Assembly: GCF_003217095.1 (NCBI RefSeq)
Contig: NZ_QJSR01000002.1
Span: forward strand, 620,001 to 684,000
Reading direction: 5' to 3'
DNA length: 64,000 nucleotides
From: Rhizobium sp. PP-CC-3A-592
Lineage (GTDB): Bacteria > Pseudomonadota > Alphaproteobacteria > Rhizobiales > Rhizobiaceae
Part shown: positions 32,602-45,510 of the stretch, piece by piece
How the letters are laid out: each line of letters starts with the position of its first letter
Position numbering within the stretch: position 1 is the stretch's first letter
Program-made: the position numbers and the translations under genes
The notes under the pieces: generated by a model
What the model was told of the DNA's origin: nothing
The model's input: only the letters and a program-made list of their open reading frames with translations
Database searches by the model: none

Positions 32602-32631
32602 TTGACAAATCAATACATCATGTTCGAATAA
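32602..32631 (+). promoter_or_regulatory. Promoter of the kinase-gntR operon
   Basis: TTGACA (32602-32607) is followed 18 bases later by GAATAA in an AT-rich stretch, 31 bases before the TTG start of the kinase gene. The leader also carries TTGACAA and ATACA elements like those in front of the sialidase-fold gene. Confidence 0.5.
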
Positions 32632-32661
32632 AGATGACAACTTATTGCGGAGACGGTCATC

Positions 32662-33690
32662 TTGCTGGTCATTCTTGCCGACGATCTCACGGGCACGCTC
32701 GATGCTGCCGCGCCCTTTGCTGCGCGGGGGTTGACGGTCGAGGTCGCCCTCGCACCGGCTGCTATCCCTGAGGCTCTGGCAGATGGGCCGGATGTTCTCT
32801 CGATCAACGTCCAGTCGCGGGAAGTCGGTGCAAAAGCCGCGCAGGCTGCGACACGTGCCGTTCTCGCCGCCTTGCCTGCGGATGTCGTGCTCTTCAAGAA
32901 GGTCGATTCGCGGCTGAAGGGGCATATAGCCGCGGAGCTCGACATGATGCCGTTTCGGGCGGCGCTGGTGGCTCCCGCGATCCCTGCCTTCGGCCGTATC
33001 GTTAAGGACGGGAAGGTCTTCGGCTTCGGCGTCGATGTGCCGATTCCGGTCACCGAGCGCCTCGGCGCGCATGCCAGCAAGGCGCGGATACCCGACACGG
33101 TCGACATGGACGAAATGGCGGCGCACCTCGATGACGCCCTGGCTGCGGGCGTCGATCTGCTCGTCGGCGCACGCGGCCTTGCCGAAGCTTTGGCGCGGCG
33201 GATGACGGGCGATGCGTCGGCGCATGCGGCCGAGGTTCCGGCGGGCCCGGGCCTGTTCGTCATCGGGTCGCGCGATCCCATCACGCTGGTGCAGATCGAG
33301 CATCTTCGCACCCGTCATGCGCCGGCTTATGTCGCCGCACCGAACGGACGCCTGTCGCCCGATGATCGTGCGGGTACCGCCCTGACACTGGTGCAGGCCG
33401 TCCCGGGCGAGGAAGAGGTGTCGTCGCTCGACGTCGCACGTCATCTCGCGTCGGGCGTCTATCCCGGCTGCGTGGACCCCTCTGCGACACTGATTCTTTC
33501 GGGGGGCGCGACGGCAGAGGCGGTGCTGGAGCGCATGGGCATCCATCGGTTCCGGCTGATGGGGGAATGCATGCCCGGTCTTGGTGTTGCCTTTGCGAAC
33601 GGGCATTGCATTATCGCGAAATCCGGTGGCTTCGGCGGGGCGGAAACGCTGAGCGAGATCGCCGGGCACATGCTTCGGGACAGGGGTTGA
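32662..33690 (+). CDS. DUF1537 four-carbon acid sugar kinase family protein
   Basis: A 342-residue member of the DtnK/OtnK kinase family, which phosphorylates D-threonate, erythronate and related aldonic acids with ATP. The N-terminal substrate-binding domain shows ILADDLTGTLDAAAPFA, FKKVDSRLKGH and APAIPAFGRI; the C-terminal nucleotide domain shows ILSGGATAEAVL and AKSGGFG. It is shorter than typical members (about 400-440 residues). The start is a TTG with GGAGACGG upstream; no in-frame ATG exists nearby. It probably works with the PdxA2-like dehydrogenase at 35560. Confidence 0.87.
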   Translation: MLVILADDLTGTLDAAAPFAARGLTVEVALAPAAIPEALADGPDVLSINVQSREVGAKAAQAATRAVLAALPADVVLFKKVDSRLKGHIAAELDMMPFRAALVAPAIPAFGRIVKDGKVFGFGVDVPIPVTERLGAHASKARIPDTVDMDEMAAHLDDALAAGVDLLVGARGLAEALARRMTGDASAHAAEVPAGPGLFVIGSRDPITLVQIEHLRTRHAPAYVAAPNGRLSPDDRAGTALTLVQAVPGEEEVSSLDVARHLASGVYPGCVDPSATLILSGGATAEAVLERMGIHRFRLMGECMPGLGVAFANGHCIIAKSGGFGGAETLSEIAGHMLRDRG

Positions 33691-33693
33691 GAA

Positions 33694-34389
33694 ATGGGAC
33701 TGGAAGCGGGAACGACACGCAAGAGCCTCGGCGACGTGGTGTTCGAGCGCATGCACCGCGCCATCAAGTCCGGGGCCTACCAGCCGGACGAGCGCCTGCC
33801 GACGGAGCATGATCTCGCAGCGGAGTTCGAAGTGTCGCGCCCGATCATCCGCGAGGCGTTGCGGCGGCTGCGCGAGCAGGGGCTGATCTACTCGCGACGC
33901 GGTGCGGGAAGCTTCGTGCGCGCACTGGGCCTGAAGGAGCCGCTCGGCTTCGGGCAGCTCGAAAACGTCGCCGATCTTCTGAACTGTTACGAGTTCCGAC
34001 TGACGCTGGAGCCGGCTGCCGCCAGTGCCGCCGCAGCGCGGCATACGGAGGCAAGCCTCACCGCCATCGCCCAAGCGCTGGAACTGATGCGGGACGCGAC
34101 CAACCGGCAGTCGCATCGCGTCGATGCCGATTTCGAGTTCCATCTCGCCATCGCCCGTGCGGCGCGCAATTCCTACTTCTCGACGGCCATGGAAGCCCTG
34201 AAGGAACACATCGCCGTCGGCATGAAGTTCCACGGCGCATCCGTGAAGCGCGACAGCGCCGGGCTTGCCCGGGTCTTCGGCGAGCACGAAGCCATCGCCA
34301 AGGCCATCGCCTCGGGTGATGGTCCGCTCGCGGGACAGTTGATGCGGGAGCACCTGACCGGGTCGCGCGAGCGGCTGTTTCCCAACTGA
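33694..34389 (+). CDS. GntR-family (FCD) regulator of the acid-sugar cluster
   Basis: A 231-residue regulator: GntR winged helix (residues about 10-75, LAAEFEVSRPIIREALRRLREQGLIYSRRG) followed by an FCD sensor domain (VDADFEFHLAIARAARN, FGEHEAIAKAIASGD). It starts four bases after the kinase stop, so the two are cotranscribed. It probably controls this operon and the divergent and convergent catabolic genes around it; the operator is not obvious. Confidence 0.9.
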   Translation: MGLEAGTTRKSLGDVVFERMHRAIKSGAYQPDERLPTEHDLAAEFEVSRPIIREALRRLREQGLIYSRRGAGSFVRALGLKEPLGFGQLENVADLLNCYEFRLTLEPAAASAAAARHTEASLTAIAQALELMRDATNRQSHRVDADFEFHLAIARAARNSYFSTAMEALKEHIAVGMKFHGASVKRDSAGLARVFGEHEAIAKAIASGDGPLAGQLMREHLTGSRERLFPN

Positions 34390-34399
34390 GGTCGATGAT

Positions 34400-34428
34400 G
34401 CCGGCGTCTTCCGTCGGAAGACGCCGGC
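34400..34428. terminator. Bidirectional terminator hairpin
   Basis: A perfect 13-bp stem with a three-base loop (34400-34412 with 34416-34428, arm GCCGGCGTCTTCC) separates the convergent gntR and alcohol dehydrogenase genes. Confidence 0.75.
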
Positions 34429-34435
34429 CGGGCCC

Positions 34436-44022: not shown

Positions 44023-44073
44023 TCGGCTTTCACGATTTCCCGTAGGACATCGCAAAAAGTTGCCTGCTGCAAC

Positions 44074-44172
44074 TGGACAAGCCGGGCGAAGGTCTTTATA
44101 CGCCCGGTCACACCGCAGCGATGCAGTGTCGCACCGCGGATACGCAGTGTGGCACTGCAGGCATGCAGTGGG
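44074..44172 (+). promoter_or_regulatory. tRNA-Lys promoter, copy 2, with short repeats
   Basis: TGGACA (44074-44079), 17-base spacer, TATACG (44097-44102), as in copy 1. Between the promoter and the tRNA (44120-44172) the element GATGCAGTG/TACGCAGTG/CATGCAGTG occurs three times with a CGCACC/GGCACT partner, a local amplification that copy 1 lacks. Confidence 0.6.
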
Positions 44173-44175
44173 GAT

Positions 44176-44251
44176 GGGTGATTAGCTCAGTTGGTAGAGC
44201 AGCTGACTCTTAATCAGCGGGTCGTAGGTTCGAACCCTACATCACCCACCA
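44176..44251 (+). tRNA. tRNA-Lys(CTT), copy 2
   Basis: Identical over all 76 bases to the copy at 21672-21747, including the encoded CCA; anticodon CTT in loop CTCTTAA. Same orientation, 22.5 kb apart. Confidence 0.97.
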
Positions 44252-44283
44252 AAATTTCTTCATGCACATTGCTATGATGTTTG

Positions 44284-44305
44284 ACCGCGCTTCTGGCGCG
44301 GTTTT
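44284..44305 (+). terminator. tRNA-Lys terminator
   Basis: Stem ACCGCGC/GCGCGGT (44284-44290 with 44296-44302), five-base loop, then TTTTCG, 32 bases after the tRNA end. Confidence 0.75.
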
Positions 44306-44574
44306 CGTCGTTTCTTGCGACATTCCCTACGCGCGTCGTTTTGTCGTTGGACCGTTATTTTTCAACGCGTCTTGCAGCACTTCGAAGACCGGAGCGCCGA
44401 TAGCGCAGCCTGCTGACCATCGACGCTTCCACCGTTTTCGCGGTGCATCTCCACCCGTCTAAAGTTCCTGTATTTATTTTGTCGACAGAGAGTGCGTGAT
44501 TTGCTAAAGCCTTCTCAACAGCGGGTGAGCGATGGGGAACATCGTTCGGTTCGCGCTTCTTTTGGAGAGATGAG
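44306..44574. other. Intergenic region before the second DHDPS-family gene
   Basis: About 270 bases between the tRNA terminator and the next gene. An AT-rich patch (TATTTATTTTGTCGACA near 44470) probably holds the promoter. A 66-codon ORF through the terminator is not supported. Confidence 0.4.
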
Positions 44575-45510
44575 ATGACCGATTCCGTTTTTGCCGGCTG
44601 CATTCCCGCTTTGATGACACCGTGCCTGCCCGATCGCACGCCGGACTTCGATGCGCTGGTGCGCAAGGGGCGTGAGCTGATCGATCTCGGCATGTCGGCC
44701 GTCGTCTATTGCGGATCGATGGGCGACTGGCCGCTCCTGACGGACGAGCAGCGGCAGGAAGGTGTGCGTCGTCTGGTGGAGGCCAGCGTTCCCGTCATCG
44801 TCGGCACGGGCGCCGTCAGCACGGCCTCTGCTGCCGGTCACGCGGCACATGCCGCGAAGGTGGGTGCGAAGGGCTTGATGGTCATCCCGCGGCTTCTGTC
44901 GCGCGGCTCGTCGCTGGCTGCCCAGAAGGATCACTTCTCGGCTGTCCTGAAGGCGGCCGACGGCCTGCCCGCCGTCATCTACAACAGCCCCTATTATGGC
45001 TTTGCCACGCGCGCCGATCTCTTCTTCGCGCTGCGCGCCAGCTTTGCGAACCTCGTCGGCTTCAAGGAATTCGGCGGCAAGGCCGACATGACCTATGCGG
45101 CCGAGAACATCACCACCGGCGATGATGATCTCATCCTCATGGTCGGTGTCGACACCGGCGTCTATCACGGCTTCGTCAATTGCGGCGCCGGCGGCGCCAT
45201 CACCGGCATCGGCAATGCGCTTCCGAAGGAAGTGCTGCACCTCGTCGCTCTGTGCGAAAAGGCAGCCGCTGGCGACGCCGAGGCGCGCCGCGATGCGAAG
45301 GAACTGGAAGAGGCGCTGTGGGTGCTTTCCACCTATGACGAAGGCCCGGACCTCGTCCTGCACTACAAATATCTGATGGTGCTGAACGGCGACGCGGAAT
45401 ATGAACTGCACTTCAACGAGGGCGATGCGCTGAGCGCCTCGCAGCGCCGCCACATCGAGAATCAGTACACCCTCTTCAAGGCCTGGTACGCTTCGCGCTA
45501 TCCCGCGTAA
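44575..45510 (+). CDS. Dihydrodipicolinate synthase family protein, distant paralogue
   Basis: A 311-residue DHDPS-superfamily barrel. The Schiff-base lysine is in GFKEFGG and the tyrosine in IYNSPYYGF; the carboxylate motif is YCGSMGDW. It is clearly different from the gene at 43135. Rhizobial proteins with these motifs occur with hydroxyproline or sugar-acid genes, so a pyrroline-hydroxycarboxylate deaminase or keto-acid lyase role is possible; low certainty. A GGAGAG site precedes the ATG. It is flanked by terminators and is transcribed alone. Confidence 0.83.
   Translation: MTDSVFAGCIPALMTPCLPDRTPDFDALVRKGRELIDLGMSAVVYCGSMGDWPLLTDEQRQEGVRRLVEASVPVIVGTGAVSTASAAGHAAHAAKVGAKGLMVIPRLLSRGSSLAAQKDHFSAVLKAADGLPAVIYNSPYYGFATRADLFFALRASFANLVGFKEFGGKADMTYAAENITTGDDDLILMVGVDTGVYHGFVNCGAGGAITGIGNALPKEVLHLVALCEKAAAGDAEARRDAKELEEALWVLSTYDEGPDLVLHYKYLMVLNGDAEYELHFNEGDALSASQRRHIENQYTLFKAWYASRYPA

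What the first reader, a model, noticed from the sequence alone, without database searches (positions are those of the whole stretch)
32602..45510. Candidate undescribed acid-sugar or glycoside pathway built on a cytoplasmic sialidase-fold protein
Seen: DUF1537 kinase with GntR; sialidase-fold protein, PdxA2-like and iron-type dehydrogenase as a coupled operon; a peptide-type ABC importer with fused ATPases; two DHDPS-family proteins. Known: DUF1537 kinase plus PdxA2 degrade D-threonate or D-erythronate to dihydroxyacetone phosphate. Inference: a larger conjugate is imported by the ABC system, opened inside the cell by the signal-less sialidase-fold enzyme, and its parts are handled by the lyase, dehydrogenase and kinase/PdxA2 branch. 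I know of no characterised pathway with this set of genes.
Basis: partly seen in the sequence, partly recalled or inferred. Interest (0 to 1): 0.78.

Follow-up and report, generated by a model that had tools for sequence, protein, structure and literature searches.

The report
Candidate pathway for pectin sugar Dha
A conserved set of genes in many rhizobia and some other bacteria looks like an unrecognised pathway that takes up and breaks down a rare seven-carbon acid sugar of plant pectin (Dha), arranged like sialic acid breakdown at the start and like a known four-carbon acid route at the end; it has not been tested in the laboratory.

Summary
The gene set is real and conserved. In 80 loci picked by the sialidase-fold gene alone, the 67 full-length ones carry the iron dehydrogenase and a DHDPS-family gene in 67 of 67 and all five enzymes in 64 of 67. 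Two distant DHDPS types replace each other and never co-occur (55 and 18 of 80). The window's second DHDPS occurs in 3 of 80, close kin, and is not part of the set. Relatives pass NCBI cut-offs for D-threonate kinase and D-threonate-4-phosphate dehydrogenase; the window copies do not. A DHDPS-type aldolase plus a sialidase-fold enzyme point to a 2-keto-3-deoxy acid sugar; the one whose cleavage and reduction would give D-threonate is Dha of the pectin rhamnogalacturonan II (RG-II). A Streptomyces homologue lies in an RG-II-type locus, and a Bacteroides one is fused to a rhamnosidase beside GH140. Import, hydrolysis, aldol and reduction steps are inferred. I found no description of the pathway in the rows shown by seven paper searches; most subscription papers are not held.

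The parts
32662..33690 (+). short DUF1537-type kinase, predicted D-threonate kinase
   Evidence: SBD_N 80.4 and NBD_C 48.6 bits; best NCBIfam D-threonate kinase, 99.8 bits under cut-off 450
33694..34389 (+). GntR/FCD regulator
   Evidence: best NCBIfam NanR 106.4 bits under cut-off 260
34436..35560 (-). iron-containing alcohol dehydrogenase, predicted threuronate reductase
   Evidence: Fe-ADH and ADH_Fe_C; among its NCBIfam matches lactaldehyde reductase and 4-hydroxybutyrate dehydrogenase, all below cut-off
35560..36525 (-). PdxA2-like dehydrogenase, predicted D-threonate 4-phosphate dehydrogenase
   Evidence: PF04166 326.5 bits; TIGR00557 338.4 over cut-off 290.35; NF002891 292.5 under cut-off 583
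36522..37730 (-). sialidase-fold protein (SIA), predicted Dha glycosidase or anomerase
   Evidence: BNR_2 205.3 bits; Foldseek GH33; invariant residues
38042..39541 (+). family 5 solute-binding protein
   Evidence: SBP_bac_5 279.6 bits
39638..40552 (+). ABC permease 1 (start chosen by eye; ORF from 39548)
   Evidence: BPD_transp_1 (scanned from 39626)
40563..41486 (+). ABC permease 2 (start chosen by eye; ORF from 40521)
   Evidence: ORF; conserved; no family search of its own
41479..43095 (+). fused double ABC ATPase
   Evidence: two ABC_tran stretches
43135..44022 (+). DHDPS1, predicted Dha aldolase (type A)
   Evidence: PF00701 179.6 bits; dapA 183.5 under cut-off 206.15; Tyr and Lys motifs
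37731..38041 (.). divergent promoter region between SIA and the binding protein
   Evidence: contains TTGTCAAG, i.e. CTTGACAA on the other strand, a word in 67 of 73 related regions

Best explanation
[quoted passage not shown] The ABC system imports a small Dha glycoside; the cytoplasmic sialidase-fold enzyme releases Dha; DHDPS1 cleaves it by retro-aldol reaction to pyruvate and D-threuronate (4-oxo-D-threonate); the iron dehydrogenase reduces this to D-threonate; the DUF1537 kinase makes D-threonate 4-phosphate; PdxA2 oxidises it and the product loses CO2 to give dihydroxyacetone phosphate. Reduction and oxidation balance if both use NAD(H). Shown here: the conserved gene set, the fold, the family memberships, D-threonate equivalog matches in relatives, RG-II-type contexts in two other phyla. 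Inferred: import, hydrolysis, aldol and reduction steps, and Dha itself.
For: All five enzymes in 64 of 67 full-length loci chosen by SIA alone. DHDPS types A and B are mutually exclusive (55, 18, both 0 of 80), as expected of alternative enzymes for one needed step. In clusters with a SIA homologue, the L118 kinase passes the D-threonate kinase cut-off (596.4, cut-off 450) and the L105 PdxA that of D-threonate-4-phosphate dehydrogenase (653.8, cut-off 583). A YhcH/DUF386 gene lies beside SIA in L104, L105, L116, L118, L119 (L116 is nearly identical to L105); the L105 one has N-acetylneuraminate anomerase as best model, 96.3 bits under its cut-off 160. YhcH gives the sialate aldolase the open form of its substrate (PMC8141875, abstract). 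Streptomyces locus: SIA homologue followed by an apiosidase-like gene, with DHDPS, ABC system, GH95, GH127, three GH28, two GH78, pectinesterase, OiaX- and OiaK-like genes, and, about 30 kb from SIA, a DUF1537 kinase with PdxA. Bacteroides GH78-BNR_2 fusion beside GH140. Residues invariant over these. A Dha hydrolase with a related propeller, GH143, is known (PMC6811678, passage). Stereochemistry worked out by hand: carbons 4-7 of Dha give D-threuronate, hence D-threonate.
Against: Nothing was assayed; the ligand is unknown. The window kinase and PdxA2 miss the D-threonate cut-offs, and DHDPS1 scores nearest to dapA, 183.5 of 206.15. In the Streptomyces locus the kinase (75.2) and PdxA (331.9) also miss the D-threonate cut-offs and OiaX and OiaK theirs. 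Type B and Streptomyces DHDPS lack the DapA-like arginine of type A. In SIA, His213 aligns with the catalytic Glu of sialidases and the first triad Arg seems absent, so glycosidase action is uncertain; symporter-type clusters might import free Dha, leaving a glycosidase without work. Some homologues lack parts: L099 kinase and PdxA2; L120 shows only symporter and SDR, L126 no DHDPS over 31% identical, L123 and L124 none of the set beyond SIA; archaeal L108 another context; in the Bacteroides record, viewed except 30000-55000, no DHDPS, DUF1537 or PdxA gene is listed. The Streptomyces stretch lists no iron dehydrogenase; an aldo/keto reductase lies beside its kinase and PdxA. No pectin hydrolase is listed beside the annotated proteobacterial clusters viewed; neighbours of the 80 loci were not annotated.
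Confidence: 0.55

Rival explanations
1. Same Dha route, but the sialidase-fold protein is not a glycosidase: it opens the ring (anomerase, as NanM or YhcH do for sialate) or opens a lactone of imported free Dha.
For: It is cytoplasmic (by eye); single symporters replace the ABC system in some lineages; the Glu of the sialidase pair is His213.
Against: Five of the symporter-type loci already carry a YhcH relative; the Bacteroides homologue is a domain fused to a rhamnosidase, which fits a glycosidase better; Tyr362 and several Arg are invariant.
Confidence: 0.17
2. Another acid sugar or conjugate that ends in D-threonate or D-erythronate: the DHDPS protein acts as a dehydratase or on another part, and Dha is not the substrate.
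For: Window kinase and PdxA2 fall short of the D-threonate cut-offs; the DHDPS family also contains dehydratases (models); type A and B active sites differ.
Against: It must explain why a DHDPS-family gene and an iron dehydrogenase occur in 67 of 67 full-length loci and the RG-II-type contexts.
Confidence: 0.16
3. The cluster degrades Kdo, the other ulosonic acid of RG-II.
For: Kdo hydrolase is listed under GH33 (PMC9120202, table passage); the Bacteroides fusion with a rhamnosidase would suit the Rha-Kdo side chain (side chain in PMC12282258 passage).
Against: Aldol cleavage of Kdo gives a pentose (recalled), which leaves the nearly constant kinase and PdxA2 unexplained (64 and 65 of 67).
Confidence: 0.05
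4. An ordinary peptide importer that happens to lie beside an unrelated acid-sugar operon.
For: Best named solved relatives of the binding protein are dipeptide-binding proteins.
Against: All four ABC genes accompany the enzymes in 64 of 67 full-length loci; the same protein family binds opines (AgaA, AccA).
Confidence: 0.03

Closest known systems
D-threonate catabolism by DUF1537 kinase and PdxA2 (Zhang et al. 2016; paper not held, seen only in reference lists; pathway recalled)
   Same: kinase and PdxA2 ending in DHAP; relatives pass the equivalog cut-offs
   Different: here joined to an aldolase, an iron dehydrogenase, a sialidase-fold enzyme and an importer
Sialic acid (nan) catabolism
   Same: sialidase fold, DHDPS-family enzyme, in some lineages a YhcH relative and a symporter; regulator nearest NanR though under its cut-off
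   Different: no hexosamine genes were seen in the annotated clusters; the predicted aldehyde product is a four-carbon acid; the sialidase-fold enzyme is cytoplasmic
GH143 Dha hydrolase of Bacteroides thetaiotaomicron
   Same: same proposed substrate, propeller fold (PMC6811678, passage)
   Different: five blades and a Tyr-Glu pair there; here best matches are GH33 sialidases and His stands at the Glu; only an 18.6-bit local match to 5mqr, recalled to be that enzyme
Apionate catabolism (OiaK, OiaX)
   Same: a DUF1537 kinase in a route for an RG-II sugar; such genes, under cut-off, sit in the same Streptomyces locus
   Different: different substrate and decarboxylase

Membership tests
GH33 sialidase | six-bladed propeller fold with Asp boxes | tested here: met
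   Foldseek best match 1eur, E 7.8e-15, TM 0.68/0.75; BNR_2 1.6e-60, BNR box 24.2 bits just under cut-off 27; blades not counted
GH33 sialidase | Tyr-Glu catalytic pair | tested here: not met
   His213 aligns with the Glu of NanB and NanC; Tyr362 with the Tyr region of an anhydrosialidase, score -3.1 bits, not significant
GH33 sialidase | arginine triad | tested here: inconclusive
   Arg229 aligns; Arg319 and Arg381 invariant; Asn37 at the first Arg by eye
GH33 sialidase | cleaves sialosides | not testable with these tools
   needs an assay
GH143 Dha hydrolase | five-bladed propeller, Tyr-Glu pair, sequence family | tested here: not met
   best fold matches are GH33; Glu replaced; 18.6-bit local match to 5mqr only
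D-threonate kinase | NCBIfam NF047819, cut-off 450 bits | tested here: not met
   window 99.8; met by the L118 kinase, 596.4
DUF1537 kinase | SBD_N and NBD_C domains over cut-off | tested here: met
   80.4 and 48.6 bits, but SBD_N over 1-128 of 230 and NBD_C over 90-168 of 168 only
D-threonate 4-phosphate dehydrogenase | NCBIfam NF002891, cut-off 583 bits | tested here: not met
   window 292.5; met by the L105 PdxA, 653.8
DHDPS/NAL class I aldolase | family match with Schiff-base Lys and active-site Tyr | tested here: met
   PF00701 179.6 bits; YDIP and GIKDS motifs
DHDPS/NAL class I aldolase | releases pyruvate from a 2-keto-3-deoxy acid | not testable with these tools
   needs an assay

The most novel reading that the evidence does not exclude
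A complete, undescribed pathway for Dha that joins a sialic-acid-like front end to the D-threonate route, with a new glycosidase family: a cytoplasmic sialidase-fold enzyme whose Tyr has a His partner instead of Glu and whose carboxylate-binding arginines are partly relocated, present in Pseudomonadota and Actinomycetota and, as a fusion to a rhamnosidase, in Bacteroidota.
Probability: 0.42. Interest if true: 0.75.

Novelty: new variant of a known kind. Interest (0 to 1): 0.64.

Why it matters
Dha is, in plants, so far found only in RG-II, and standards of it are lacking (review PMC12168206, passages); I know of no described bacterial route for it after release. The proposal names an enzyme for each step, gives a role to a large group of proteins annotated exo-alpha-sialidase in rhizobia and other bacteria, and would make Dha accessible to enzymatic work. 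It would also tie rhizobia and agrobacteria to feeding on RG-II fragments.

Tried and rejected
DHDPS2 as a pathway member: rejected, 3 of 80 loci. Kdo as main substrate: set low because the D-threonate branch is nearly constant. The arginine of DHDPS1 as proof of a four-carbon semialdehyde acid product: weak, since type B and the Streptomyces enzyme lack it. Shared operator of the kinase and SIA/SBP promoters: CTTGACAA is in 67 of 73 SIA/SBP regions but 3 of 65 kinase regions; not conclusive, may be a -35 box. Published data for the S. meliloti pSymB copy (NC_003078 160197-161372): the record held has no gene table; smb20141/142 are called Dpp-like in PMC2651895 (passage) but I could not tie these tags to the locus; PMC12239276, PMC3333776 and PMC8844928 had no relevant passages for the terms tried. 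Paper searches for the pathway, with rows shown of papers found: 0 of 0; 20 of 22; 11 of 11; 20 of 35; 15 of 138; 12 of 76; 15 of 302; no row shown describes it. Searches looked for side questions. Apiosidase-like genes on Rhizobium plasmids were not examined for context.
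Full report
What is there. The window lies in a Rhizobiaceae genome near Ferranicluibacter rubi (the homologue in that species is 97% identical). A tRNA-Lys gene (44176) separates these from the second DHDPS-family gene. The own genome has 2 PdxA, 8 DHDPS-family and 2 DUF1537 genes in all; the strongest DHDPS match, 303.3 bits, lies elsewhere, so DHDPS1 is unlikely to be the lysine-pathway enzyme (inference).

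The set is conserved far beyond the genus. They were chosen by SIA alone, so what lies beside SIA is independent evidence. Of the 67 loci of at least 21 kb, 67 have Fe-ADH, 67 a DHDPS-family gene, 65 PdxA2, 64 the kinase and 64 all five enzymes; 64 have all four ABC genes (identity thresholds, anywhere in the locus). Over all 80, DHDPS is of type A (DHDPS1-like) in 55 and type B (about 25% identical to it) in 18, never both; the 7 with neither are all shorter loci, 5 to 16 kb. In 13 loci type B is listed between PdxA2 and Fe-ADH. DHDPS2 occurs in 3 of 80. By genome sampling the SIA gene is patchy: 12 of 61 relatives, 3 of 385 in the class sample and 13 of 398 in the phylum sample, own genome counted each time; 2 of those 13 are distant.

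Other lineages keep the enzymes and change the transporter. Pantoea plasmids carry PdxA, Fe-ADH, DHDPS, a sodium:solute symporter, SIA, a YhcH/DUF386 protein and an SDR; no kinase is listed in the stretches shown. Caballeronia has DHDPS, Fe-ADH, a kinase-PdxA fusion of 768 aa, the symporter and SIA. Roseomonas is similar, its kinase annotated only as a nucleotide-binding domain protein. The kinase of L118 passes the NCBIfam cut-off for D-threonate kinase (596.4, cut-off 450) and the PdxA of L105 (Pantoea) that for D-threonate 4-phosphate dehydrogenase (653.8, cut-off 583); the window copies do not (99.8 and 292.5), though D-threonate kinase is the best model for the window kinase. So D-threonate is the best-supported late intermediate.

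Working back from D-threonate. A DHDPS-family enzyme with the Schiff-base Lys and Tyr most simply cleaves a 2-keto-3-deoxy acid to pyruvate and an aldehyde, and a Fe-ADH can reduce an aldehyde to an alcohol (family knowledge). The aldehyde acid that reduces to D-threonate is D-threuronate, so the parent would be a seven-carbon 2-keto-3-deoxy diacid. [quoted passage not shown] YhcH of E. coli gives the sialate aldolase the open form of its substrate (PMC8141875, abstract), which fits the YhcH relatives in symporter clusters; the L105 one scores 96.3 against the anomerase model, under its cut-off 160. The window regulator's best model is NanR, 106.4 bits, under its cut-off 260.

Independent context. 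The Dha idea was noted. A later plasmid search gave a Streptomyces homologue (34.8% identical) in a locus with DHDPS, a peptide-type ABC system, SIA and then an apiosidase-like protein (PF13204, 65.8 bits, cut-off 26.5), with pectinesterase, three GH28, GH127, GH95, two GH78, a fucosidase, a GH141 insertion domain, OiaX-like (386.8 bits, cut-off 700) and OiaK-like (264, cut-off 700) proteins, and about 30 kb from SIA a second DUF1537 kinase (D-threonate kinase 75.2, cut-off 450) with PdxA. That mixture, apiose genes included, is what RG-II would call for; the assignment to RG-II is mine. The apiosidase gene is 97% conserved in one other Streptomyces record. In Bacteroides finegoldii a weak hit (E 1e-6) proved to be a GH78 rhamnosidase with a C-terminal BNR_2 domain, beside a GH140 gene, with GH28, GH78, GH43 and a polysaccharide lyase. 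No DHDPS, DUF1537 or PdxA gene is listed in the parts of that record viewed (all but 30000-55000), so it supports the RG-II link of the domain, not of the whole route.

The sialidase-fold enzyme. The model (mean pLDDT 81.5) has GH33 sialidases as its best matches. Profile alignment to NanB and NanC places Glu60 at the acid/base Asp, Arg229 at a triad Arg and His213 at the catalytic Glu (the roles of the sialidase residues are recalled). A non-significant alignment (-3.1 bits) puts Tyr362 at the catalytic Tyr. The first triad Arg seems replaced by Asn37, by eye. Glu60, Asp64, Arg229, Arg231, Asn258, Asn260, Arg319, Tyr362 and Arg381 are invariant in 7 sequences from the window to the Streptomyces, Bacteroides and archaeal homologues. 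This looks like an active enzyme related to sialidases that misses one of their defining features. Whether it is a glycosidase, an anomerase or a lactonase cannot be decided here.

Results against. SIA also occurs without the full set: L099 lacks kinase and PdxA2; L120 shows only symporter and SDR, L126 no close DHDPS, L123 and L124 (26% identical) nothing of the set; the archaeal homologue has another context. The Streptomyces stretch lists no Fe-ADH; an aldo/keto reductase lies beside its kinase and PdxA. The DapA-like arginine is absent from type B and the Streptomyces DHDPS. The binding protein's best named solved relatives are dipeptide-binding proteins. No pectin hydrolase is listed beside the annotated proteobacterial clusters viewed, and the other neighbours of the 80 loci were not annotated.

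Verdict. I commit to Dha catabolism (0.55 for the whole statement; about 0.85 for the D-threonate to DHAP end and about 0.65 for the aldol step, both my own estimates). It is a new variant of known kinds of pathway, built from known families; the sialidase-fold enzyme may prove a new glycosidase family.

Noticed in passing
window 44176-44251 and 21672-21747: Two tRNA-Lys (CTT) genes; one sits at the downstream edge of the conserved cluster, between DHDPS1 and DHDPS2.
   Followed up: no
window 32662-33690: The DUF1537 kinase is short (342 aa; SBD_N matched over 1-128 of 230) and changes fast: about 53-64% identity in many rhizobial loci where PdxA2 is about 83-90%.
   Followed up: partly
L024 8907-9860 and equivalents: A gene that looks like an EamA/DMT transporter (by eye, no family search) was grouped in 15 of 82 loci, next to SIA in those listed.
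   Followed up: no
window 37731-38041 and equivalents: The word CTTGACAA (either strand) is in 67 of 73 SIA/SBP divergent regions; operator or -35 element.
   Followed up: partly
L112 11085-13391: Caballeronia carries a natural kinase-PdxA fusion of 768 aa.
   Followed up: yes
L127 2226-6092: Bacteroides GH78 rhamnosidase fused to a SIA-like BNR_2 domain beside GH140; possibly a two-step enzyme for the Rha-Kdo side chain of RG-II.
   Followed up: partly
L127, L128, L129 (NZ_OY725969.1): The record called a plasmid lists genes such as gcvP, serC and the Na+-translocating NADH reductase, so it may be a chromosomal piece.
   Followed up: no
L108 9932-11026: Archaeal (Halomontanus) SIA-like protein with the same invariant residues but a different gene context.
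   Followed up: no
L114 6109-16125: Spirosoma plasmid locus with symporter, DHDPS-family gene, SusC/D pair and an FGE-sulfatase/BNR_2 fusion; its DHDPS is 21% identical to DHDPS1 and lacks the usual motifs in part.
   Followed up: no
L109 1-5356: In Thioclava the cluster lies beside rhamnose catabolism genes (rhaS, rhaI, rhamnulose-1-phosphate aldolase); rhamnose is also a pectin sugar.
   Followed up: no
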